64,000 nt of DNA from Nymphaea colorata (lineage: Eukaryota; Streptophyta; Magnoliopsida; Nymphaeales; Nymphaeaceae): positions 33,079,934-33,143,933 of the forward strand of contig NC_045138.2 in the NCBI RefSeq assembly GCF_008831285.2, read 5' to 3'. Shown in pieces: positions 3,308 to 64,000 of the stretch. The position numbers and the translations under genes are program-made. Every line of letters begins with the position of its first letter. Position 1 is the stretch's first letter. A model generated the notes under the pieces. That model was given only the letters and a program-made list of their open reading frames with translations. It searched no databases and was not told the DNA's origin.

Positions 3308-3385
3308 AAAAAATTGTTCTGCATTCTTTTTGTAAAAAATTGTTCTGCATTCTTTTTGTAAAAAATTGTTCTGCATTCTTTTTGT
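3308..3385 (+). repeat. Three perfect tandem copies of a 26-bp unit in the probable 3' UTR
   Basis: The unit is AAAAAATTGTTCTGCATTCT plus TTTTGT. Copies run 3308-3333, 3334-3359 and 3360-3385 without a mismatch, starting 67 bases after the stop of the wound-induced peptide gene. They are probably inside its 3' UTR. Perfect identity implies a recent expansion, and the copy number may vary between individuals. Confidence 0.9.
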
Positions 3386-3389
3386 AAAT

Positions 3390-13101: not shown

Positions 13102-14631
13102 ATGGGCAGCCTGCAAGACCACGGAGAAGAAAGGCTCGGCCTTCTTGATGCAGAGGAACTACGGAAACAAGCACGTCTGGTGGCTGATTTTATTGCTGAC
13201 TATTACAAGGCGATTGAAAGCTATCCCGTGTGTAGCCAAGTTCAACCTGGCTACCTGAGCAGCCGGTTGCCGGAAACGGCTCCTAACAAGCCAGCTCCCT
13301 TGGAGGCCATTCTCCAAGATGTGAAGAAACATATCCTTCCCGGCCTGACTCACTGGCAGAGCCCCAGTTTCTTTGCCTACTTCCAGGCTAATGTAAGCAC
13401 CGGGGGGTTTCTTGGGGAGATGCTTTGCAGTGGCTTCAACGTCGTTGGGTTCAACTGGCTTGCATCGCCGGCGGCCACGGAGCTTGAATCACTGGTCATG
13501 GATTGGATGGGCGGTATGCTTAATCTCCCGTCGTCATTCAGGTTCAACGCTTCCAACAATGGTGACAGTAAAAACGGTGATGGTGGAGGTGGCGTCATAC
13601 TTGGCAGCACATGTGAAGCCGTAGTGTGCACCCTGGTGGCCGCTAGGGACAAAGTCTTGAGCAGTATGGGCTACGACAGTATAACCAAGCTTGTAGTCTA
13701 TGGCTCTGACCAGACCCACTCATGCCTGCAAAAGGCATGCAAGATAGCAGGCATCAACCCTAATCACTACCGGCCACTTGCCACCTCTTACAAAACCGGC
13801 TTTGCACTCTTGCCGGACGTCGCCCGACGGGCAATGGCGAGCGACGTCGCAGCCGGCTTGATCCCCCTTTTCCTCTGCGCCACCGTAGGCACGACGGGTG
13901 TCGGCGCTGTAGACCCTTTGCATGGGCTGGCGCAAGTGGCTAAAGAATACAAAGCCTGGCTCCATGTTGATGCGGCCTATGCAGGCAGTGCTTGCATATG
14001 CCCGGAGTTCAGGAGCTACCTAGATGGAGTGGAACATGCAGACTCTATGAGCACGAACCCTCACAAATGGCTCCTCACCAACATGGATTGTTGTTGTCTA
14101 TGGGTGAAACACACTTCTCTCTTAGTGAATGCCTTGTCCACCAGTGCTGTTTTCCTCGACAATCCGGGCACCGCATCCCTAGAGGTCATAGACTATAAAG
14201 ACTGGCAAATTGCATTGAGCCGGCGGTTTCGTGCCATCAAATTGTGGCTTGTGATTCGCAGCTATGGCCTGAACGGCCTCAGGGAGCATGTAAGGAGGCA
14301 TGTTAGGCTTGCCATGCTCTTTGAAAAGTGGGTGAGCACGGATGAAAGGTTCGAAATCGTCGCGCCAAGAAGACTTGCCTTGGTCTGCTTTAGGCTCAAA
14401 CCAGGAGGAGGAGGAGATGGCGAGGGTTCCGAGCTCAACCGCAAGCTGCTGGAAGCGATCAACTCCACCGGGAAGGTTTACATGACTCACACAGTTGTGG
14501 ACAAGATGTTCGTGCTGCGTTTTGCTGTTGGCTCCACGTTAACGGAGGAAAGGCATGTTCGTGGTGCTTGGAGCATCATACAAGAGCAATCCAGTGTAGT
14601 TGCTGCTGGAGACGCGGCAAGCATTGCTTGA
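13102..14631 (+). CDS. TYDC/AAS: Aromatic aldehyde synthase / aromatic L-amino acid decarboxylase family (TYDC/AAS), 509 aa
   Basis: This is an intronless, full-length cytosolic group II PLP enzyme; plant members are typically about 490-530 aa. Seen: PLP-stacking His206 in SDQTH, pyridine-binding Asp290 in [16 protein letters not shown], Schiff-base Lys322 in NPHKW, and [16 protein letters not shown] around 363-378. Family knowledge: a loop Tyr (human AADC Tyr332, poppy TYDC Tyr350) permits simple decarboxylation. Phe at this site makes aldehyde synthases, which decarboxylate and oxidatively deaminate to aldehyde, CO2, NH3 and H2O2. Here the loop reads STSAVFLDN, with Phe351. Ser373 in IALS is the residue linked to phenolic substrates (Tyr, Dopa, Phe) rather than tryptophan, where Gly is usual. 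I therefore predict 4-hydroxyphenylacetaldehyde or phenylacetaldehyde formation. Unusual features: a Gly/Asp/Asn-rich insert at 149-164 and [10 protein letters not shown] in place of the common YFPSSGS. Confidence 0.93.
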
Positions 14632-20678: not shown

Positions 20679-20915
20679 TCAGTTGGGACCCCAGCAGCTG
20701 AGGTACATGACGGTGCGTAGCGACTCCTCGGCCCGCCGGCGCTTCTCCTCGGCGGCTCTCCTCTTGACGGGCTCAATCGCGCTGGAGAAACGCCTGACGT
20801 CCCTCCGGCCGTTGACCTTGGATGCAACATCACACCTGGGAGCCTGGTCCTTCACCCCTTGCACCGCCTTGCTGCCGGCGGCGATGCAGATCCTACTCGC
20901 ATGCCTCAGGCTCAT
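20679..20915 (-). CDS. DUF3774 wound-induced/wound-responsive peptide (WIP), 78 aa
   Basis: This is a second member of the plant DUF3774 family, on the minus strand and single-exon. The C-terminus LRTVMYLSCWGPN is the exact family signature. The N-terminus MSLRHASRICIAAGSKAVQG followed by VKDQ matches the usual pattern MS...A.....A(V)EALKDQ. A basic, Arg-rich segment (RRAAEEKRRRAEES) precedes the signature. I chose the ATG at 20915; the frame stays open further upstream, but only this Met gives the family N-terminus and size. The coding region is GC-rich compared with its surroundings. The protein shares little with the copy at 2963-3241 outside the two ends, so the pair is not a recent duplication. 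Confidence 0.88.
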   Translation of the reverse strand: MSLRHASRICIAAGSKAVQGVKDQAPRCDVASKVNGRRDVRRFSSAIEPVKRRAAEEKRRRAEESLRTVMYLSCWGPN

Positions 20916-22995
20916 TCCCTTTCTAAAAGTTGCCGGAAAGAACCTTGGGAAAGGACTAGGGACGGATTTACAAACGACCCACTTGAAGAAATCGCCGGAG
21001 AAACTGCCGAAAAGCTTAGACGGATAGAATTCAGATCGATTTCCACGACCCACTTGATGATATCGTCGGAAAGGATCGTAGAAGGTGGATTCAAAAAGGA
21101 TTGGAACGATCGGGAAGGAAGATATCACTTTCGGCTGGGGCTCTATGATTCTATCAATCTGAGGAAACAAGCACCACGAAATTTTTTATAGGGAGAAAAT
21201 TCGCCGTTGGGTTGGAGGAAACCGGCGGCTGTTTAGGCGTAGGAGAAATGGGTCGGAAGAGGAAGACGGATCTACACGATGGACGGCGGTGATCTTGTTC
21301 GCAGTAGCGTGCCTTGTTTTTCAAGATTCTAGCCAGGTGAATACTGTGGGTGGGGTGACTTCAGTCGGTGCCCTGGTTTTTTACCGTCCTTGCCGGGGGA
21401 CGAAATTGAGGCCGCTACTTTCCGAAAGTAAGGCTGCTATTTGCAACTCCAAGTGATGGTATGTCATGGGATTGTCCGGCAAACGGACATCAAGACTCAC
21501 GGGATCCAAAAATTTTGATCTGTTTTGTAGCCTGCTTACAAATACAAGAGGGTCAACTGGTTTCAGATTTCATGCTGGACCGGATCTGCATCCATAAAAG
21601 CCTAGGCTCCATCGCATGTCAACGTTCCGAATGTAACCTGATACTTGATCTGATCCCAAATTCAAATAATTGGATTTAACAAGTTCCAATTAGTAATCAG
21701 ATGCAGATATGGTATACAAATTTTTATCGAGTTTGATATATATTTGATTTTTACAAACATCCGGATGGACTACATGTAAAAAAAAAAAAAAAGTATGGAT
21801 CTCAATTTAATTCTAAATCTAATTTAGCAATACAAAATAGTCAAAAATGAAATTTAACCATATGAGATCCGAATCTGATCAGCTAATATCTCTACTGAGT
21901 TTGGGTAAGTCATTTGTTCTCGAATATTGCCAGTTGACCCCAAGGGACTGGCAAAAGTGAGATGTGGTGGTCGAAGGGACAGTCACGATGCGATTGTCAA
22001 GCACGTCATTTCTTGAAAAGGTGAAATTTGCGGAGCCCAGCTTGAGGTTGAAGGGAACTAGAGGAGTGTTGCCATTGCTTTTAGCTCCAAGATTTTTCTT
22101 CCATTATACTTTCCGATGCAAATTCGCAGGGAGGAAAAGGCCTCTCTTAACCTATTATTACCAAAAGGAATGAACAAAATACATGAGAGAGTAAAAGAAG
22201 ACACAAGGAGGTCGTTTCAATAAGCCTCGGCGTACAAGAGATTATACTTTAAAACTAGTTTGGAAGAGGTTCAAAATCTAGAGAATCTTAGTGACACAAG
22301 TAATGGCTTGAGAAGAGAGCCTAATATTAAGAAAATGAGTTTTGCGAGACAAGACCCTGTTAACAGAAGCATACACAGCACCTTTCAATTTAACAAGATC
22401 TTTTCCTGTAGTAAAAACATAAAGATGCCTCAGCCCCAATTCTCCTTCCATACATTTACTTTCTCACCATTACCAATTATCCAAGAAACCAAATGACTGA
22501 TATTGTCCCAACCCCAAAGACAACTCTTCCATGCCCACGAAAAATGGCTTGTGTGTTTTTCTTCAATTATACTCTAAAGATCGCAATACTTTTTTTTGTC
22601 TGTTTTTATAGTTTGTTCATTTTGTCTATGCTATATGGAGGCAGATTAAAAACATTCTAAAATATCAGGAGGATTCCAAGAACATGTATAACACCAATCG
22701 GCAAGTCAGCATGGCATTCAAGAAGTGCATCAAATACTGTCTGGTTCACTTCATGTTTGACCAAACTTCAAATTTTGAAGACCACGGCAGTAAAATTGAA
22801 CATCTGAAGCTTTCTCGAGGGTAAAACGAATCATAGTGTTTTTTATTCCTGAGGCATACAATTTCAAACATTGCACCAATAAAATCATCCACTATGGGAA
22901 ATAAAGGGACAACCACAAACCTTCCAATTGATCATAACAAACCTTTTAAAGGCAACAAATAACTACTTCAGTATCACATAATGTAAGTGTTAATT
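20916..22995. other. Spacer between the wound-peptide gene and DGK
   Basis: The first few hundred bases are likely the leader and promoter of the minus-strand wound peptide gene. The rest holds short frames without motifs and a poly-A run near 21778. The part next to 22995 is the expected 3' UTR of the diacylglycerol kinase. Confidence 0.5.
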
Positions 22996-35690: not shown

Positions 35691-38600
35691 CTCTCGACAA
35701 TCCAACGAGCAGTATCAACTTTCTCTTTCCAGTAAGTGGATCTTAGTGGTCATGTACTCTGCTGCATAAAATCTATTTAATTTTATGCGTTGTGGAGGTA
35801 ATTTTATGTCCGTTATGAATCTTCTCTTCCCGGATGTTATCCATCAGTTATAGCAGTGTCAGCCAGCTTACCATGTAGTCATAGTGTCTGAAAATAAATG
35901 TGCCAGGAGCCAAAAATCCTTGTAGAATTGAGGTTGACTCTCATTACAGCCCTTGATTGTTGCTATAACATGAAAGTTCTGTGTTATCTTTTCATGCAGA
36001 TGGTGCCACATTTCTTGTTTTAACATTGAATGCTACCTTTCTCTCATATTGTAGGTCGCCAGGTTGAGTTTTTTCCATCCTGGGACTGTATATGCGTTGT
36101 GCCTGACCCTCCTTTGTTTGCCGGAATTGTGGTGAAATTTCAATTTGCAAGAGGGAATCTACAATATAGTATATATGCCAAGTGCAAAATCCAAAACATG
36201 TAAATGTGAGTCTGCATACTATCTTCTTCTTGTGTTTTACTATATTGGTATGTTTACTTTTGTGGAATAAGCTGCTTAGATCATATGAACTACATATGGG
36301 ACATTTAATATTTCCATGATGGTTTCATCTCATCTGCAGATTGGCTGCTGGCATCAAATGTAATTGGTCCATTGGAGAGGTAATGTATAGAGTTCTCACT
36401 AAAATTTTTAGGTCGTTCATTCTGTAATTTTTGATGTTTTAGAGGACAAGATGCTAAGCCTTTAATAATAAAATAATGTTTGTGCCATTGGAAGCTGAAC
36501 ATTGCATATTCTTGTGGTAGACTTGGTAGGGGTAGTCTTTGATAATAATGAGGGCACTTTCACAAGATAGTCTACTATCTTGTTTTTTTTATGACAAATA
36601 CAGGTTGCTTCCTGCTTGTAGTTAAATGTACTGAATGTATTTTTGGTTGAACACTGTCTGTGTTTGTCTGCTTTAATGCTATTTGAGGATGTGAATTCCT
36701 AGGGTGTGACATTAATTCTTTGTGTGTAGATTTTTTATGTATATTTTTTTATAATCAGTAAATGAAATTTAAATTGTTAAAAAATTGTCTGGGGAGCGAA
36801 GTGGAAGGAAAACGTCATTTTTTACGTAAAATGATAAAAATACTCTTTATTCACCAGCATCCTTCAATTTCATCAGCATGTTTCCCAGTGAGCTTCCATT
36901 TTCCACGGACAAGGGGTGGTAGTTGATGACTTCTGAAGCTAGAATCCACAATCCATATAATCGTCCTCTACCTCCTAAATCTCAATAAAACATGCCCTTA
37001 GTTGGATAGAGTAGCACACACCATCGCCATGGTTCTTTGATTCTATTCCCAACACAGATCTTCTTGGCCATCATTCCCCCTCCCGAAAGGCTCCTGCTAT
37101 CTCGGGAAAGGCTTGTATTTCTCTTTATCTTCTCTTTTCCCCTGAAACGGAAGGACTGTCCAATCCCCTTCTCTCCATGTACTATTCACTTTTCCTCAAA
37201 TCAATCTTTGGATCATATAGTATAGGGATTTTTTACCGTTGAAAACCAATTGTCAAATGCCCAAGGTGCAGCTTTACTCAAGATTAGCAAATCTTTCAAT
37301 AAGCGATGATGGGCTTGGTCAAATTGAAGTGCACTTGAGCTTCTGTTCTCACCGTCATTAACTTCAAGTAAGTGCCCCAAAATTGTTGAATTGTCTTCAC
37401 CATCATTAACTTCAAGTTAAGTGCCCCAAAATTGTTGAATTGTTCGGTCGAGGGTTTCTTGACCATGAGTGCTGTGAGATGTATTCTTGGGCAAGCGGCA
37501 TATGGACGAGCTCTTAATGTGCATCTCAAGGCACCAAAAATGAGTTTGTGACATCCTTATTGCTCTGATTGACAACACAATACTTGACATAGGACATGCA
37601 ACGGTTGTGCCTTGTGTCATTGATAACTCCCTCCCTCCTTGTGCACCCATGGAAAGAGGCAAGGGAGGCAGGGGTCAGAGAAAAGGGGAGATGCATAGGT
37701 AAAGATGCTGAATGACAGGTCGCAATATGCGGAGTATTTTTTGGGGCACATGAAGGGTAGTTTTTTGTCATTGTAGAAAAAATAACATAATCCATTGGCG
37801 TGACTGCCCTTTGAGAATTTATCGACACCTATATGTTGAGTTTCAAGAGTTGGCTGGTAATTTGTTTCTTGCCCAAGCATTAGTTGGCGTTCTGTTGTGC
37901 TGTCTAATATTTTGTTCTCAAATTTTCATGACTTCTAAACCAAAAGATAGAAACCTTGCAAACATTTTTTGAGTTTTTTAAAAGGTTGACATAAATTAAC
38001 ATTCGTGAAGTTTGAACTCAACATATATTTGTGGACATGTGAGAACATTTTTACCACACTTAAATTTTCGAAGACTTTCTTCAGACTTTTGAAAAAGCAT
38101 TTTCTGGGTGTAGATGTCTTTTAATTTTACAAAGTTTTTCAAATCCGGATCGTCGTGCTCTTTTTTTTATTTATAATTCAAAACATTCCTAATTCTTTTG
38201 CAATTTATTATGTGCTCTTCCAAGTTTCCCTATAATATTATAAAGTATCACAAATTTTTACATTTTTTGAACTTGGTTAACGTTTATTCTCAAATTTTTA
38301 TTATCTTGAACCAAGATTTGAAAAATTTCAAACTTTTCTTGAAATTCTCTAAATCTTTGACATTAATGAGATATCAATGAACTTTGGTACTTATATATAT
38401 ATATATATGCAAGCTTATGGAAACATTTTTATCCAACTTGAAGTTTAAAATTTTGTCATTATTTTAAAGAAGTTTTCTTATTTTGCATTACACGAAACTT
38501 CGTAAAAATTTTCACAACAGAGTCTTTCTGCATGTAGAAACTATGTTGGCAGCTTTTATGTGCTTCATGAGCTGCCTTTAGAAGATAGTCTATCATTAGT

Positions 38601-45030: not shown

Positions 45031-46575
45031 ATGATCAGTACACTCGCCGGAAAATTTCTCCCTCCTGTCATCCTCCAAAAATGCGCCACTATGAAGCAGC
45101 TCAAGCAAATTCACGCCCACTTTATCACTGCCGGCCTCCTCGACAGCAACGTCTTCCTCCTCGGCCGCCTATTCGCCTTCTGCGCGGACACAGATTCTGG
45201 TGATCTGGACTATGCGCACCTTGTGTTCACCCAAATTCGAAGTCCCGATATCTTCTTCGTCAATACCATTATCAGGGGATATTCAACCAGTCCCACTCCC
45301 ACTAAATCCATTCAATTCTACACTCACCTTCTCCGGTCGCGTCAAGCCCCCGATCTCTACACTTTTCCGTTTGTTCTCAAGGCGTGCACGCAATTGTCGG
45401 ACGTCTGGCAGGGAGAAACGATTCATGGGCAGGCGATAAAATTTGGATTTAGCTCATATGTGTACGTGGGGAATGCGTTGATTCATATGTATGGGTTCTG
45501 CGGGCACGTCGAAACTGCTCGCCAACTGTTTGATGGAATCTCTGAACGAGATGTTGTGTCCTGGAACTCAATGATATCGGTTTATGCTAAGCTGGGCGAT
45601 GCCCGCGAAGCGCGGTCGCTTTTTGATGCAATGCCGGAGAGGAATGTGATCTCTTGGAGCGCCATGATTGCTTGTTATGTGCAGCAGGGATCTTCTAAGG
45701 ACGCCTTGAATATCTTTTCTCAAATGCAAGCTGATAAGGTTATGCCCCATAAATCCACTTTGGTGAGTGTGCTCTCGGCTTGTGCCCATCTGGGCGCTCT
45801 CGAACAGGGCAAGTGGGTTCATGCTTTTGTTGGATCTAACGGTATGAAACTGAGCGTCGTACTTGGAACCGCACTTATAGATATGTATTCCAAGTGTGGC
45901 TGCGTAGATCTTGCTTTGAAAATCTTTCATGAGATGCATGAGAAGAACCTGTTGGCATGGACCACTATGATCAAAGGGCTAGCAATGCATGGGCGCGGGC
46001 ATGAAGCGGTCAATTTGTTTACTGATATGTTGGCACTAGGCATTGAACCTGATGATATTGCCTTTATTGGAGCGCTCAGCGCCTGCACTCATGCAGGGTT
46101 GGTAGCCGAAGGTCGCCAATATTTTGAAATGATGAGTACAGTGTATAATGTTAGCCCCAAAATTGAGCACTACGGATGCATGGTTGATCTCCTTGCACGA
46201 GTTGGGCAGCTTGATGAAGCAAGGGAGATGGTTGAAACGATGCCAATGTGTCCTGATAGTCTTATCTGGGGTGCTCTGTTGGCTGGTTGTAAATTTCACG
46301 GGAATGTGGAGCTCGCAGAGTCTGTAGCCAAGCATTTGATTCAATTGGAGCCTGAGAATTGTGGGGTTTATGTCTTGCTGGCTAATATATATGCTGCATC
46401 TGGTAGGCATGGAGATGCCAGGAAGTTGCGAGAAAAGATGAAAACAAAGAGATTGATGAAGACTCCTGGGTGTAGTGTCATCGAAATTAATGGTACCATA
46501 CACCAATTCCTTGTTGGTGATACCTCCCATCCTCAAATAAAGAAGATACAAGCAATGTGGGAAGGGATAGGCTAA
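45031..46575 (+). CDS. PLS-class pentatricopeptide repeat protein, E domain, reading frame ends early at the DYW domain
   Basis: An intronless plant PPR protein. Such proteins bind organelle RNA one base per repeat, and the E/DYW classes direct C-to-U editing. The 514-aa frame holds roughly ten alternating P, L and S repeats, for example DVVSWNSMISVYAKLGDARE and NVISWSAMIACYVQQGSSKD. An E region follows (IWGALLAGCKFHGNVELAES, GVYVLLANIYAASGRH, then an E+ part with GCSVIEINGTIHQFLVGD). The frame stops seven codons after AMWE, exactly where DYW proteins continue with RLIKLEGYVPD. That sequence follows in another frame (see the next feature). Start: 45031 is the first ATG in frame; MKQLKQIHAHFI at 45091 is an equally plausible start. 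N-terminal targeting cannot be judged. The truncated product could still act as an E-type PPR. Confidence 0.85.
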   Translation: MISTLAGKFLPPVILQKCATMKQLKQIHAHFITAGLLDSNVFLLGRLFAFCADTDSGDLDYAHLVFTQIRSPDIFFVNTIIRGYSTSPTPTKSIQFYTHLLRSRQAPDLYTFPFVLKACTQLSDVWQGETIHGQAIKFGFSSYVYVGNALIHMYGFCGHVETARQLFDGISERDVVSWNSMISVYAKLGDAREARSLFDAMPERNVISWSAMIACYVQQGSSKDALNIFSQMQADKVMPHKSTLVSVLSACAHLGALEQGKWVHAFVGSNGMKLSVVLGTALIDMYSKCGCVDLALKIFHEMHEKNLLAWTTMIKGLAMHGRGHEAVNLFTDMLALGIEPDDIAFIGALSACTHAGLVAEGRQYFEMMSTVYNVSPKIEHYGCMVDLLARVGQLDEAREMVETMPMCPDSLIWGALLAGCKFHGNVELAESVAKHLIQLEPENCGVYVLLANIYAASGRHGDARKLREKMKTKRLMKTPGCSVIEINGTIHQFLVGDTSHPQIKKIQAMWEGIG

Positions 46576-57761: not shown

Positions 57762-59387
57762 ATGAATCCCCTCCCGTTCATTGCGGCTCTCCTTCTGGCG
57801 TCTCTCGTTCTCGGCGACTCTGCCAAGGACAAGGGCTCATCGTCGGACCCGATGAACCCCGGCGAGTCGCCGGGAACCGTCCCGGCATTCCCGGTCCAGT
57901 CAGAGGCGCAGTTGTGCCGGCTGGACCTTTCGGACGAGCTGTTCGGCGGGGTGAAGGAGGCGTGCGGGCAGGTGCTGGACAGGAGTCGGTGCTGCCCTGT
58001 TCTGGCAGCTTGGCTCTTCGCTGCTCACGCCCGCTCGGCGCTCCAGCCGGCTGGACCGGTCTCGTCGGAGCTGCCCGCGATGCCCGACGACTCGCAGAAG
58101 TGTGTCAGTTCGCTGCAGGCGTCTCTGCAGAGCCGAGACATCTCGCTGGCCCAGCCCAACGCCACCTGCGACACGGTACTCTGCTTCTGCGGCATCCGGC
58201 TCCACCAGATCGGCTCGCTCAGCTGCCCGGCCGCGTTCAACGTCACCAACTCCTCGCGGTCCGCCGTCCCCACGCCGGCGGTCCGCGCTCTCGAGTCCAG
58301 CTGCCGGAACGCCTCCTACTCTGGCTGCACCCGCTGCCTGACCGCCCTCCAGAAGGTATGTGGCCCACCGCACCGTTCATGAGTCCTGCTTCTTCCGTTC
58401 AATCCTGTCATCGTTGTTTCCATTTTTTTTATTTCATTTTTCTTCCTTCTTTATTTGGGGAAATCTGGTGGTCTGAGTCGAATCAACCCGTCCTTCGTTG
58501 TCCTTTTCTTTTGGCACCTTGGTTAGTCTTTTGATGCACAATACTTATCCAGAAATTCTGAGATATCTCAGATTCTCAGTTGTTTTCTGGACAATTTGAA
58601 GACAAATGCATTCCAAACTACCAATGGTACTGGAGAATTGGCACTGGTTTTTTGCGCAAAGGAGTGTGAGAAAAATGGCGTTTCTTTCTTCTGCTAGGAA
58701 AAGTTTCTTTTGTTTTTTCAAAAGGTTTACCAAACTAAATTTCCAGGTAAACCCAGACTCCTTGAACCCATACGCTCTTCCTTTTTCATTTCAATGTAAC
58801 TAAGAGAGCAATTCCCAGTTCCATGATTGGGGTCTGCAAGATTTCTCTGTCCCAAATGCTGCTCTGAATCTGAACAAGTTTCGCTTTCTAGGACAAGTTT
58901 GTGCATGCAAAGCACAAGAAGTACCTGATCCAACTTGAACTTTAACTCCCACTGTGACACTGTCTTGTCTTATTTGGATCTGATGTTGGTTTCCCAAACT
59001 CAGCTCAGTTTAATTACCGCCGTGGTTGTTGGCCTGATGCAGCTTAAGGAGGGAGAGAACTACACCAAGGATGGCAATGACCGGGCGAGCAAGATGTTCA
59101 GCAGGGACTGCCAGCTGATGAGCCTGACTTGGCTTCTGGCCAAAAACAAGACGGCCTACATTCCGACCGTGTCCGCCGTTCTCCGGGCAGTCATGTACAG
59201 CACGCATCCTCACCAGTCGAAGTGCAGCCCGGACCAAGAGAACATGCCTCTCGCCGTCGACTCGCTCCAATTCCTCAAGCCGGAATCGTCCGCCGCCATG
59301 AGTTCGCCCAAACCAGTGATGGCCCTCCTCTTGCATCTCTTCCCTCTTGTGTTTCTTGCCTTGGATCGGGTCGTGTGGATCTTTTAG
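57762..59387 (+). CDS. SPARK-domain GPI-anchored protein, At4g28100-like, 312 aa
   Basis: A secreted protein predicted to sit on the outer face of the plasma membrane through a GPI anchor; the biochemical role of this plant family is not established. Two exons, 57762-58355 (198 codons, donor AAG|GTATGT) and 59043-59387 (acceptor GATGCAG), join in phase 0. Residues 1-20 form a signal peptide with hydrophobic core FIAALLLASLVL. The ectodomain is rich in conserved Cys (ACGQVLDRSRCCPVLAAWLF, CDTVLCFCGIRL, CRNASYSGCTRCLTALQK), the pattern of the SPARK domain. Several N-glycosylation sequons are visible (NAT, NVT, NSS, NAS, NYT, NKT). The end is a hydrophobic tail (VMALLLHLFPLVFLALDRVV) after a small-residue SSAAMSS region, as in GPI-attachment signals. 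Length is close to Arabidopsis At4g28100 (about 300 aa). Exon 1 is strongly GC-biased compared with the spacer. Confidence 0.88.
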
Positions 59388-61272
59388 ATTATACTGAATC
59401 TGGATCTCGTTTTGTGCATACATAGAGTTGGATACTACGGCTAGGCCGATGGTGGTCTTTTTTGTGTCTATGGTTCTTCATTGATTATATGTTATAATCC
59501 ATATCTCTGGTTCTATGTGATTCCATAGTGGGCTGTTTAATGAATATAGCATCTCTCTGACTGGAATTTGGATCAGTACTTCTTCTTTTTCTCCCTCGTT
59601 GAAAGGATGGACAGGGATTCTGGTATCTGTCGGTCTTTCGGGTAACTGGGCCAAGTCTGGTCAGGCCATTGATGGTCCTTTCTGAAAGGGGTCTGCCGGA
59701 ACCCAGCCCCGATCGACAAAGCAATGGGCCTAACTTTCTCCTCCTACCTCTCAATCATTTTGGTGGGTCCTGCACCGGCTGGCTCAGTGTTTGCAACTAT
59801 TTTGAATCTCATATTTACATAATATTGCACTAAGTAATACGTTACCAAATAATCACATATCTAAATGTTTCTTTCGGTAAGGTAAGAGCGTCTTGAACTC
59901 TAGGATAAAAGTTGGCCGGATCAGATGGTTATAATATATTATCTAGGTTCAAATAATGTGAATATGGATAGGGTAAGAGTCATGAACATTCTCATTTGCT
60001 CTTGGTCAATAAGCGAGAGGAATCATTCAATATAAAAAGGAAGGCATTGAATTTGGGATTCACGAGATGGTAGGCGAGGAATCTAGCGTATGTGAGCGTG
60101 CACGTATGCCCGTTTGGTAAAAACTGTTCGTTCGTTTGTTTTCCCACTTAAGAGGTAAAAGCAATAAATTTTACAGTTAGTGGATTCACATGCTTAATGG
60201 GAGTTTTCACCGCCGGCCCTCATGCTGAATGTTTGTTTGTCTGTCTGTGACTTCATTCATCAAGGGAATATGTGGTAGGAGACAAATGCATTCCTCTGGT
60301 CTTACAGCATTGATTTTTGCGGTAAACTTTTCTTAAAGGTTTGGGGTGAAAAAACGAGTCCGTTTGTCGCTTAAGGAATCTGCATTTTGTCTCTTCTTAC
60401 CCGTTGTGATCTTTTAAATAAACTTGTACCTGAACCCTCTTGGGCGCGGCGTTGCGGTATATATATATATATATATATATATAGACAACCGAGAGCAAGA
60501 CCAATGAGTTTTTTAAACTGTTTCATACCAATCCAAGGTTTAATATGATAACGTGACAGTCCAGGTATCGATGCATTTAGATTATCTGGATCTAGTGGAG
60601 AACTGTTTTAATTCAATTCTAGCATCTATTAGCGACCCACAACAACATCCGGACCTACTGTCGTGAAAAGAGTAAATGAATAAATGGTTGAAATTACTTC
60701 ATGACTCGTGAGAATTCACTCTCTGTCTAGAGTACCACCCGTCATACGCTTTCTTTTGCAGTATTTCAAAAGAATTTTAACTTTTTCTCATTTTAATTTT
60801 TCCATATATTTTCTTCGAACTTTTGAAAATTTTAAGTAATAATATTTGTCGCTTGAAATCGCTGAATCGGAACGATTCCCGGTATCGGCAGCCCGGCCGA
60901 TTTGATTCAATTTGTCATTTTCACGACACCGAACTTGGAAGCATACAGCAACATTTCTAGTTTCCTTTTTTCCGCTAGTATTTAAGGTTTTAAATTAATT
61001 TGCAAACCATTATAACATCCGATGCGGCGGTGCAAACCTTTCTTCCGATTTTGCTTGAGTGGGCTCGGGCTGTGCAAAAGCAGTGGATTAGATTTTTTAC
61101 TTTTTACCTCCATGGGTAAATTCTTCCCAGGATATTCGCAGCCTGAAGATTATTTGGTAACTACCGTCTTTATTTGCATCGGCGTTCTCTTACTTCTGTA
61201 TGACATGCATGTTCTGCAATCGGCTCCCACTTTTCTCTCTCTTTGCACCGCCACAGTCTTAACAGCGTCGGC
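59388..61272. other. Intergenic between GPI-protein and cysteine-rich peptide genes
   Basis: 3' flank of the GPI-protein gene, then AT-rich spacer with a (TA)n run at 60458-60483. No gene is seen. Confidence 0.5.
60458..60483 (+). repeat. (TA)n microsatellite
   Basis: Thirteen uninterrupted TA dinucleotides directly after a GC-rich GGGCGCGGCGTTGCGG segment. Confidence 0.9.
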
Positions 61273-61692
61273 TCAGTTGGCGCAGCAAATCAAGCACTTT
61301 GGAGTCTTCCGGCCATATCGCCAGCAGTAGCAGCATTTGCACCTGTAATTGCAATCTCCTGCAACCAAAATGACGACAGAAGAAATCATCAACGACAAAG
61401 CTGCAGGCAGTTGAAGAAACGCATGTTCGCAACAGTATCAACTATTCCCGACGATAAATTTACAGTAGCAAAACATGTTGAAGACGCTTCGAGCAAAAGA
61501 TGAACAGTCGAGAGAACCTGTTGCAAAGGGACCATCCGATGAAATATTTTTTGGGACAACTTGATCCTGAGCCAGTGAGCCGAGCATAGAGGATGGGGCG
61601 AGGGCGACCGAAGATGGCAGCACCACCACCATTGAAACAGAGAGAAGGATGAAAAAGAAAGAGTGAGCCCTCATTTTCGTTGATCCTGCCAT
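61273..61692 (-). CDS. Candidate secreted cysteine-rich peptide, two exons, 86 aa (80 aa from Met7)
   Basis: I inferred this gene from splice sites; neither half is convincing alone. Exon 1 (61518-61692) ends ACAG|GTTCTC. Exon 2 (61273-61358) follows GGTTGCAG. They join in phase 1 as a GGA codon, and the 159-bp intron is plant-sized. The product has a clear signal peptide (core FFFILLSVSMVVVLPSSVA, cleavage near ALA), a short Ser/Pro/Asp-containing spacer, then GDCNYRCKCCYC followed by WRYGRKTPKCLICCAN and a stop. That is eight Cys in 24 residues, spaced C-X3-C-X-CC-X-C-X9-C-X2-CC, so up to four disulfides. A TATA box 21-28 bases before the first ATG suggests that translation starts at Met7, which also gives a better signal peptide. 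It is not snakin/GASA, defensin, RALF or EPF by Cys spacing; the family is unknown to me. Function might be signalling or antimicrobial, but this is inference only. Confidence 0.5.
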
Positions 61693-61712
61693 ATCCTAGA
61701 ACCTTTAATCCA

Positions 61713-61720
61713 TATTTATA
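61713..61720 (-). promoter_or_regulatory. TATA box of the cysteine-rich peptide gene
   Basis: TATAAATA on the minus strand. With the usual 25-35 base spacing, transcription would start at about 61695-61685, at or past the first ATG (61692) but before the second in-frame ATG (61674). Confidence 0.5.
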
Positions 61721-64000
61721 CTGGTTTTGAAACCAGTCGTGACATCCACGTTGCAGCTATCAATCGAGATGCCTATTCTTGTTTATATCGAATAACTTTT
61801 GAGTAAATTAGTCTGGATCTGATGACAGATGCTGATGCATGCGTTTGTAATTGTTGGAATCGCTCCTCTTTTTGGAAAAGTTATTCTCATTCATTTTCTA
61901 ATTTGAGAAAGGCTTTGTGGCAGAAGGATTATACTGGTTTTATGCGTGAATCGATCGCCATGTTCTCTCTGCCTTACAGGCAAAGATTGGCGCTTCATGC
62001 TTACAGTAAACTTTACACGGTAAGGAATAAGATACTATCGCCATTCTTACTACAAGGGACGCAAGGTTCCAGACACTTGCTAATAGATTTTGTACACAAT
62101 TTTCTTTTGTTTGGATAATGGTGGCTGCTGAGCATATTCTAGGCACATTCTCGTTCTGGACGCAGATCAGTACCTAAAGCACTGCTCATTAATATTGGTT
62201 CTTTTGGTACAACTTAACCTGCTTCGTTAAGCCTTGAAGCCAGAACAAAATAGCTTAATCAAATGGTTGTTGGGTCTTCGATTTTTTATTTTCCACTACA
62301 GTGTGTACAGTCGTAAACCAATTTGCTCAAGTCAGTCTGAAAAATGACGTGATTGACGGTAGCTGAGATGAAATTACTAGTGCTAAAGAGTCCTACAACT
62401 ACATGGTTGAAATTCTAAGTAAAACAAAACTAACAAAGCGTTCATGATTGTCCTAAAGGTCTGCAATTGGTACTTTTATAAAGAGAATGAACAATAATGA
62501 CAAGGACTTTTCAACAATATTAGTACGCAACAAAAGACTAAAGGAAATATTCTCGAATCAAGTTAACTATTGAAGACCAACCATATAGAGAAGCAAAGAT
62601 ATCAAAGAGAAAATGAAGAAGCTAGGAGAAAATACAGCCACGAGACCTTTTATTTGTTTCAGATTTGTGGAAATCAAGCACAAGATACATTAAGCTTTCA
62701 AGAGTAAGCAATCGACTAAAAACGGAGCTAGAAAAGCCAACTAGTGTTCCATGTGTTGGGAACATTCATGATACACACAAAACATATACATGGATGTTAA
62801 TGGATTGCCAATAAATTTGGAGATTAAGCACTAGTGGAATAAAGTTCCGAGAGTTAGCCGTCTAGACGACTATAGCCATCTACCACCTTGGATTGTCATG
62901 CTTCATGGATATCTCCAAGCGTTGTCACCAAAAACCATTGCAGAGCAGATACTTGGAGTGACAATGTAGTAAGGCACAATACAACAGATAAAAAGTAATC
63001 AACAGGATTGATCGTAAAATGGTATGGGTTAAGTTTTCTATCAAAAGCCACTAAAATAGTGTCTTCTACATAAAAGGTTCGTTTAAGGGTGATAAGTTCT
63101 CCTAAATGTTGGGTCCTCAACTAATTAAAATTTTTGCAAATGGTTTTGGGTTGAACTCTTCTCTTTCCTTGAAAGAAGCCCAAGACAAACCAATCCTAGG
63201 CGGTGGGTTTTGTAAAATCATAAGGTAGATGATAACGACAACAATGGGATTGAACTCTACTAGACTCTAAGTGTAATGCTGTCTGCCAAACTTTGATTAG
63301 TTTTGTGTCATGGTTACATGAGGAATCTACGAAATGATGATCTTTCAGAAACATAACCTCACAAGGGACGAGTTATCCTCAAACTCTATCATAAAAATAG
63401 AGCTTTGTCACTAGCAAAATTTTCCAAATTCTCTTGTTGTAAGGTTTCCTTGTAGAGGTTGGATGCTTGATTACTAAGGGGAAATAGTGACTTATATAAC
63501 TCACTCTCCTGCACACCTAAACACTACTTTTAGGGCAAGTTAGGTTTGAATGGTTTGAGATGCTTTTAATCATAATCTCAGGTTTAGGATCAAATGGGTC
63601 AAGCAGTTCCCCGAGATTTCTCCGCCCAAGCATATACATAAAAAAAAGGTCCAAAGTACATGACTCAAACTAATGTTTTCCTATTTAAAATACAATTCGA
63701 AGGTTATGAAAAACGACAAACCACAACCCTAGGTAGCACATGCAAAACTTGTTAAGAGATAATACTCTAAGCAATAACACACAAAAACAACATGTAGAAA
63801 TCAAAGCAAAATCACCATGTCCTAAAATGCCCCTATCTCCCTAAGTAAATGGAAATTCTAGAACTTGTAAGGGTGGGCAGGTCCAGAAATTTTATCTATT
63901 TGATTAAGATACAGAGTTTTAAAAATTACAGAAAAATTAGAAATAGAAACTAAAAAGATGGGGAAAAACATTCCAAAAAAGTATAATTGAACAACTTTTT
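61721..64000. other. Right-end spacer, probably repeat-derived
   Basis: No supported gene. 62.6-63.9 kb is A-rich with a repetitive feel and one 74-codon minus-strand frame ending near 62896 (FLVTTLGDIHEA), which could be a retroelement fragment. The window ends inside this stretch, so a larger element may continue to the right. Confidence 0.4.

What the first reader, a model, noticed from the sequence alone, without database searches (positions are those of the whole stretch)
61273..61692. Cryptic two-exon gene for a secreted peptide with a dense, unfamiliar cysteine pattern
Seen: a minus-strand TATA box, a signal-peptide-coding exon with a GT donor, an AG acceptor 159 bases further on, and a short second exon. 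In the phase-matched frame, 8 of 24 residues are Cys (C-X3-C-X-CC-X-C-X9-C-X2-CC), followed at once by a stop. Cysteines are absent from exon 1, and the other two frames of exon 2 do not show the pattern. Established: plant secreted Cys-rich peptides often have exactly this layout, with the first exon carrying the signal and the last the Cys core. Inference: this is a real, unassigned peptide family, or a very diverged member of a known one.
Basis: partly seen in the sequence, partly recalled or inferred. Interest (0 to 1): 0.7.

Follow-up and report, generated by a model that had tools for sequence, protein, structure and literature searches.

The report
Two-exon plant secreted cysteine-rich peptide gene
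A small, probably real plant gene appears to make a secreted, positively charged 28-residue peptide packed with eight cysteines in a spacing that matched no family searched here, perhaps a defence or signalling peptide; its plant relatives could not be looked for.

Summary
On the minus strand, exon 1 (61692-61518), a 159-base intron and exon 2 (61358-61273) splice into an 86-aa precursor: signal-peptide-like stretch, acidic pro-segment, cationic 28-aa core with 8 Cys, stop.

It is more than chance. The Cys cluster is the densest in the window. All 8 TGC triplets of exon 2 lie in the splice-matched frame; 3 of 100,000 local shuffles reach 8 Cys in that frame, open. A complete model of this kind arose in 0 of 2,405 and 0 of 2,545 Markov windows. 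The splice pair ranks first of 394 by a recalled plant matrix.

Weak points: poor donor (CAG|GTTCTC), uninformative codon usage, no homologue, no RNA.

Pfam, PHROGs and PDB gave no match, NCBIfam one chance match. No plant collection was searchable, so "unassigned family" is untested.

Best reading: a real plant cysteine-rich peptide precursor whose core may form a disulfide-locked hairpin, most likely a cationic defence peptide. The kind is known; the cysteine framework is apparently new among the sources searched.

The parts
61714..61720 (-). TATA box candidate TATAAAT (a second candidate, TATAAAC, at 61781-61787)
   Evidence: pattern; second one read by eye
61518..61692 (-). exon 1: Met1 at 61692, Met7 at 61674; signal-peptide-like stretch and acidic pro-segment; ends CAG|GTTCTC
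   Evidence: best 12-residue Kyte-Doolittle mean 2.98
61603..61674 (-). probable signal peptide if Met7 is used: MRAHSFFFILLSVSMVVVLPSSVA, cut after Ala30 (or after Ala32)
   Evidence: inferred from hydrophobicity and the -3,-1 rule (recalled); SignalP not available
61519..61602 (-). pro-segment LAPSSMLGSLAQDQVVPKNISSDGPFAT, computed pI 4.2, charge -1.2, one N-glycosylation sequon (NIS)
   Evidence: pI, charge; boundaries inferred
61359..61517 (-). 159-nt intron, GC 0.42, 41% T, ends TTTTGGTTGCAG
   Evidence: acceptor 61358 scores above about 99.9% of 7,738 AGs in the window (both strands), donor above 89% of 6,329 GTs
61273..61358 (-). exon 2: 28-aa core GDCNYRCKCCYCWRYGRKTPKCLICCAN and stop; 8 Cys, pI 8.9, charge +4.7 (first base of Gly59 is in exon 1)
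61169..61174 (-). AATAAA polyadenylation-signal-like hexamer, about 100 nt after the stop

Best explanation
This is a real protein-coding gene of a land plant for a small secreted cysteine-rich peptide. SHOWN by the sequence: an open spliced frame with a hydrophobic leader, an acidic pro-segment and a cationic, 8-Cys, 28-residue carboxy-terminal core, framed by TATA and AATAAA signals. INFERRED: the leader sends the precursor into the endoplasmic reticulum; the eight cysteines oxidise to four disulfides that lock a short beta-hairpin (strands KCCYCW and KCLICC around the basic turn RYGRKTP); the acidic pro-segment balances the core's charge and is removed by proteolysis near the SDGPFAT/GDC junction; the free core acts outside the cell. 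The cationic, aromatic-bearing hairpin most likely acts as a host-defence (antimicrobial) peptide. The confidence given is for 'real secreted cysteine-rich peptide gene'; for the defence role alone it is about 0.4.
For: Frame and architecture. Splice pair first of 394. Cys density unique in the window. 8 of 8 TGC in phase, 3 of 100,000 shuffles. Full model in 0 of 2,405 and 0 of 2,545 null windows, 2 of 2,295 and 0 of 2,284 with relaxed cut-offs. Exon GC 0.50/0.50 against intron 0.42 and flanks 0.38/0.43. Core pI 8.9, charge +4.7; pro-segment pI 4.2. AlphaFold2 on one sequence: two strands at 10-15 and 23-28, best mean pLDDT 75.4. The two-exon layout (signal exon, mature-peptide exon) is described for plant small peptides (PMC3924332, passages); plant antimicrobial peptides are described as mostly basic, 2-6 kDa, with two to six disulfides (PMC4695807, passages); the core computes to 3.3 kDa.
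Against: The donor CAG|GTTCTC is weak (score 0.6, against 5.99 for the neighbouring gene's donor). Codon log-odds of the spliced CDS is 1.8, and 49% of 621 stop-free stretches score as high, so it does not discriminate; in exon 2 another frame scores slightly higher (2.22 against 1.47). A degenerate TGC run (TGCTGCTACTGCTGG) supplies three of the eight Cys. No homologue and no transcript. The AlphaFold2 model had no alignment, the five models ran from 50.9 to 75.4, pTM is 0.33, its first two residues are read from the intron side, and Foldseek found no PDB match. Nothing tests the defence role directly.
Confidence: 0.7

Rival explanations
1. Same gene, but the peptide is a signalling ligand read by a cell-surface receptor kinase (as with ESF1/PCP-B or EPF peptides), not an antimicrobial.
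For: Same precursor layout. PCP-B-like peptides are small, typically basic, secreted, have 7-8 Cys, and their authors point to a functionally essential aromatic residue shared with ESF1.3 (PMC5215366, passages). The core here has one W and three Y.
Against: Pfam gives no match to any ligand family and no PDB sequence matches. High charge and an acidic pro-segment suit defence peptides at least as well (inference).
Confidence: 0.25
2. Chance or transient open frame: a TGC-rich stretch near a hydrophobic ORF that is not expressed as this peptide, or a young orphan without function.
For: Weak donor; uninformative codon scores; partial TGC repeat; no homologue found, although the collections searched hold no plants.
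Against: 0 of 2,405, 0 of 2,545, 2 of 2,295 and 0 of 2,284 null windows. Five of the eight Cys lie outside the TGC run, and all eight are in the same phase as the signal exon.
Confidence: 0.2
3. A very diverged member of a known plant CRP class, for example a compacted hevein-like or knottin peptide, or a relative of the SAR8.2 proteins.
For: The first six Cys follow the order CXnCXnCCXnCXnC that PMC5743680 gives for six-cysteine hevein-like peptides (passages). From memory, SAR8.2 proteins also end in a Cys cluster closing with CC and Ala.
Against: Loops are 3, 1, 0, 1, 9 here; bleogen pB1, from its stated Cys positions 2, 9, 17, 18, 22, 33, has 6, 7, 0, 3, 10. A one-residue second loop leaves little room for a knot (inference). 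No Pfam model matched up to E = 10, though HMMER's filters can miss short Cys-rich peptides.
Confidence: 0.15
4. A metal-binding, metallothionein-like peptide.
For: The core holds CKCCYC; CXCCXC occurs in the carboxy-terminal patterns of MT2-2 and MT2-3 (PMC3677015, Table 1).
Against: Signal-peptide-like leader; four aromatic residues in the core (aromatics are scarce in metallothioneins, recalled); no Pfam match.
Confidence: 0.07

Closest known systems
Plant small secreted cysteine-rich peptides (CRPs) as a general class
   Same: Short precursor, leader in exon 1, Cys-rich carboxy-terminal core in exon 2, basic core (PMC3924332 passages; PMC5215366 passages).
   Different: Cys spacing C-X3-C-X-CC-X-C-X9-C-X2-CC; no Pfam model matched, and six written forms of parts of the motif were in none of the held papers.
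Six-cysteine hevein-like peptides (bleogens)
   Same: Order of the first six Cys, CC at Cys III-IV, basic, three-domain precursor occurs there too (PMC5743680 passages).
   Different: Much shorter loops, two additional Cys (the CC at the end), no Pfam match.
SAR8.2 family of Solanaceae (recalled)
   Same: Secreted precursor whose Cys cluster closes the protein with CC and Ala (recalled, not tested).
   Different: No Pfam match; spacing differs as recalled.
PCP-B / ESF1 peptides
   Same: Small, typically basic, secreted, seven or eight Cys, conserved aromatic residue (PMC5215366 passages).
   Different: Their fold has a helix and a three-stranded sheet; the low-weight model here shows two strands and no helix; core only 28 aa.
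Plant metallothionein type 2
   Same: CXCCXC string (PMC3677015 Table 1).
   Different: Leader, aromatics, one Cys domain, no Pfam match.

Membership tests
Plant secreted cysteine-rich peptide (class, not a homology family) | short precursor (under 160 aa, PMC5215366) with amino-terminal signal peptide | tested here: met
   86 or 80 aa; best 12-residue hydrophobicity mean 2.98 near the start. Hydrophobicity only; no SignalP run.
Plant secreted cysteine-rich peptide (class, not a homology family) | carboxy-terminal Cys-rich region | tested here: met
   8 Cys in the last 26 residues, none before
Plant secreted cysteine-rich peptide (class, not a homology family) | expressed, spliced transcript | not testable with these tools
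   no RNA data
Six-cysteine hevein-like peptide | Cys order CXnCXnCCXnCXnC | tested here: inconclusive
   first six Cys fit the order, loops 3,1,0,1,9 are far shorter than bleogen pB1's, and C-X2-CC adds two Cys
Six-cysteine hevein-like peptide | sequence profile match | tested here: not met
   no Pfam model at E up to 10
Non-specific lipid transfer protein (eight-cysteine motif) | CC at Cys III-IV followed by CXC at Cys V-VI (recalled order) | tested here: not met
   Cys V and VI are nine residues apart; no Pfam match
Plant defensin (CS-alpha-beta) | CXXXC in a helix bonded to a CXC in the central beta3 strand (PMC4695807) | tested here: not met
   model shows two strands, no helix (low weight); no Pfam match
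SAR8.2 | match to the family profile | tested here: not met
   no Pfam match at E up to 10; HMMER filters can miss short Cys-rich peptides
Metallothionein type 2 | two Cys-rich domains with the published spacing | tested here: not met
   one domain, other spacing; compared with PMC3677015 Table 1; no Pfam match
PCP-B/ESF1 | sequence match to a solved member (ESF1.3 was solved by NMR, PMC5215366) | tested here: not met
   no PDB sequence up to E = 10; whether that entry is in the copy was not checked

The most novel reading that the evidence does not exclude
A plant peptide class of its own: an unusually compact four-disulfide core, a 28-residue cationic hairpin with eight cysteines in 24 residues (C-X3-C-X-CC-X-C-X9-C-X2-CC), overlooked because its two-exon gene is too small for gene finders and too dense in Cys for family models. 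(How compact it is against all known plant peptides was not surveyed here.)
Probability: 0.35. Interest if true: 0.6.

Novelty: new member of a known kind. Interest (0 to 1): 0.38.

Why it matters
Small one- and two-exon peptide genes are hard for gene finders and often missed in plant genomes (PMC3924332, passages), and each new cysteine framework is a possible new disulfide scaffold and a new defence or signalling peptide. If relatives share this spacing, four disulfides in 24 residues would be a very tight scaffold to study. If it is only this one locus, it is an ordinary lineage-specific peptide gene.

Tried and rejected
Whole-genome search: no genome is held for this window. Homologue searches: bacterial and archaeal genome contigs (213 pattern matches, none confirmed), viral contigs (21 pattern matches, none confirmed), plasmids (4 records at E 6-8, chance). 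None of these is a plant collection, so the misses say nothing about plant relatives. Profile searches: Pfam none, NCBIfam one chance match (E 0.2, acyl-CoA synthetase), PHROGs none (core only).

Other copies in the window: tblastn of core and leader found the locus itself and otherwise weak chance matches (best E 0.038 for the leader, 0.060 for the core); blastn of the locus gave three other short matches (14-23 nt, E 0.13-0.45), no second copy. Repeats over 59500-63500: only short pairs; no dedicated search for mobile elements was made. Rfam: no match at gathering scores. ARAGORN: no tRNA gene.

Other splice choices: exon ends at 61630, 61627 and 61624 with the same acceptor rank 2 to 4 and give Cys-free tails; an end at 61533 (rank 5) keeps the core and shortens the pro-segment by five residues; 61518 with the acceptor 61400 (rank 6) keeps the core and adds 14 residues. 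The antisense ORF 61204-61503 gave only sub-threshold Pfam matches. The coding-potential test was uninformative. The splice matrices were written from memory; as a control, the neighbour gene's donor ranked 1 of 92 and its acceptor 5 of 83.

Literature: ten searches. Strings of the core and of the Cys motif; descriptive searches. Searches returned nothing. One search returned one human epigenome paper and two papers, on yeast engineering and on hepatitis C virus; I saw only their listings and take them as chance letter matches. One search listed eight, of which I opened two (PMC3677015, PMC5743680). One search listed four, of which I opened one (PMC5215366). One search found 72 and listed 15, of which I opened three (PMC3924332, PMC7902602, PMC5557327). 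Searches (1 paper; one found, 15 listed; 1 paper): listings only. PMC4695807 was opened by its recalled id: outline with abstract, passages, section 33. The other six were seen as passages only. The passages I saw of PMC7902602 (pollen tube secretomes of Amborella, maize and tobacco) and PMC5557327 state no Cys spacing of this form; I did not read them through.

Full report
What is there. Reading the minus strand, exon 1 runs 61692-61518, the intron 61517-61359 (159 nt) and exon 2 61358-61273; together they give an 86-aa protein ending in TGA. The unspliced frame runs on into the intron and stops after 84 codons, so intron retention would give a short protein with the same leader but without the core.

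Is it more than chance? Six-frame Cys density: this is the only 24-residue stretch of the window with 8 Cys, the six others listed reach 6; first-, third- and fifth-order Markov windows reached 8 in 0 of 60, 0 of 60 and 2 of 60. Within exon 2, all 8 TGC triplets fall in the frame that the splice joins to exon 1, and there is no TGT; of 100,000 dinucleotide shuffles of exon 2, 3 had at least 8 Cys and no stop in that frame, 5 in any frame. The whole architecture (hydrophobic leader, donor, acceptor, phase, at least 7 Cys before the stop) appeared in 0 of 2,405 (order 3) and 0 of 2,545 (order 5) simulated 64-kb windows; with loose cut-offs in 2 of 2,295 and, for 8 Cys, 0 of 2,284 (order 5). In the real window it was the only locus, also when only 5 Cys were asked (10 tails, 1 with a model). 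The cut-offs were chosen after seeing the locus, and Markov sequence is simpler than a genome, so these are orders of magnitude, not exact probabilities. Part of the cluster, TGCTGCTACTGCTGG, resembles a triplet repeat and gives three of the eight Cys; the other five lie outside it.

Gene signals. The acceptor is outstanding (above about 99.9% of 7,738 AGs in the window), the donor only fair (above 89% of 6,329 GTs); as a control the same matrix put the neighbour's donor first of 92 and its acceptor fifth of 83. Exons have GC 0.50 and 0.50, the intron 0.42, the 300-nt flanks 0.38 and 0.43. TATAAAT is at 61720 and AATAAA at 61174. With the usual TATA-to-start distance (recalled) the first TATA favours Met7; another TATAAAC at 61787 would allow Met1. 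Codon log-odds trained on three window ORFs does not discriminate (score 1.8; 49% of 621 overlapping stop-free stretches are at least as high; in exon 2 one wrong frame scores 2.22 against 1.47).

Surroundings. The window looks like land-plant DNA (inference from its genes): an aromatic amino-acid decarboxylase at 13102-14631 (Pfam; best PDB relative a tyrosine/dopa decarboxylase), a PPR protein with E motif at 45031-46575, and an ORF with a DUF3774 wound-induced-protein domain at 20679-21170. The nearest gene that I could model, 57762-58355 joined to 59043-59387 on the plus strand, encodes a 312-aa Cys-containing protein with a signal-like start and a hydrophobic carboxy end, no Pfam match up to E = 1; it is convergent with the peptide gene. 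Repeats around the peptide gene (59500-63500) are only short pairs, and there is no second copy in the window.

What it most likely is. The precursor has three parts: a leader with a long hydrophobic stretch (best 12-residue mean 2.98) and Ala-containing cleavage sites; an acidic 28-aa pro-segment (pI 4.2); and a cationic 28-aa core (pI 8.9, charge +4.7, 3.3 kDa) (part boundaries inferred). AlphaFold2 run on the core with two extra residues in front, read from the unspliced window, without an alignment, gave two strands, K10-W15 and K23-C28, which I read as a hairpin; best mean pLDDT 75.4, the other four models 50.9-69.7, pTM 0.33. Foldseek found no PDB match. If the strands pair as a hairpin, the cysteines numbered 5 and 6 and those numbered 3 and 7 of the core would face each other; this pairing is my inference, no distances were computed. 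The mechanism I commit to: secretion, disulfide locking, pro-segment removal, and action of the free cationic hairpin outside the cell, most likely against microbes (about 0.4), less likely as a receptor ligand (about 0.25). Shown: sequence architecture only. Inferred: secretion, disulfides, processing, function.

Relation to known families. No match in Pfam up to E = 10 (HMMER's filters can drop short weak matches), PDB sequences or PHROGs, and one chance match in NCBIfam. The order of its first six Cys fits CXnCXnCCXnCXnC of six-cysteine hevein-like peptides (PMC5743680, passages), but its loops are far shorter and C-X2-CC adds two Cys. CKCCYC resembles CXCCXC in metallothionein type 2 patterns (PMC3677015 Table 1), but leader and aromatics speak against a metallothionein. 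nsLTP and defensin features are not met. Six written forms of parts of the motif were in none of the held open-access papers; this does not cover subscription papers, supplements, other notations or sequence databases.

Limits. No plant genome, transcriptome or proteome could be searched; the misses in prokaryote, viral and plasmid collections do not bear on plant relatives. So the claim 'unassigned family' stays open, while 'real secreted Cys-rich peptide gene' is well supported by the sequence alone. Verdict: observation confirmed, interpretation partly supported, a new member of a known kind with an apparently new cysteine framework.

Noticed in passing
57762-58355 and 59043-59387, + strand: Two-exon gene model for a 312-aa Cys-containing protein with a signal-like start and hydrophobic carboxy end (looks GPI-anchored; resembles, from memory, the uncharacterised GPI-anchored At1g61900/At4g28100 group); no Pfam match.
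   Followed up: partly
13102-14631, + strand: ORF without introns for an aromatic amino-acid (tyrosine/dopa) decarboxylase.
   Followed up: partly
20679-21170, - strand: ORF with a DUF3774 'wound-induced protein' domain at its carboxy end (residues 97-162 of 163), Pfam E 3.8e-14; the listed TTG start is probably not the true one.
   Followed up: partly
61438-61692, - strand: Intron retention would give an 84-aa protein with the same leader and a different tail holding three Cys.
   Followed up: no
61204-61503, + strand: Open frame (stop to stop) antisense to exon 2 and the intron, only sub-threshold Pfam matches (DUF1218, E 0.016; DUF5086, E 0.082); probably chance.
   Followed up: partly
3308-3388 and 37349-37443: Short minisatellites, 26-nt unit x 3.1 and 49-nt unit x 2.0.
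   Followed up: no
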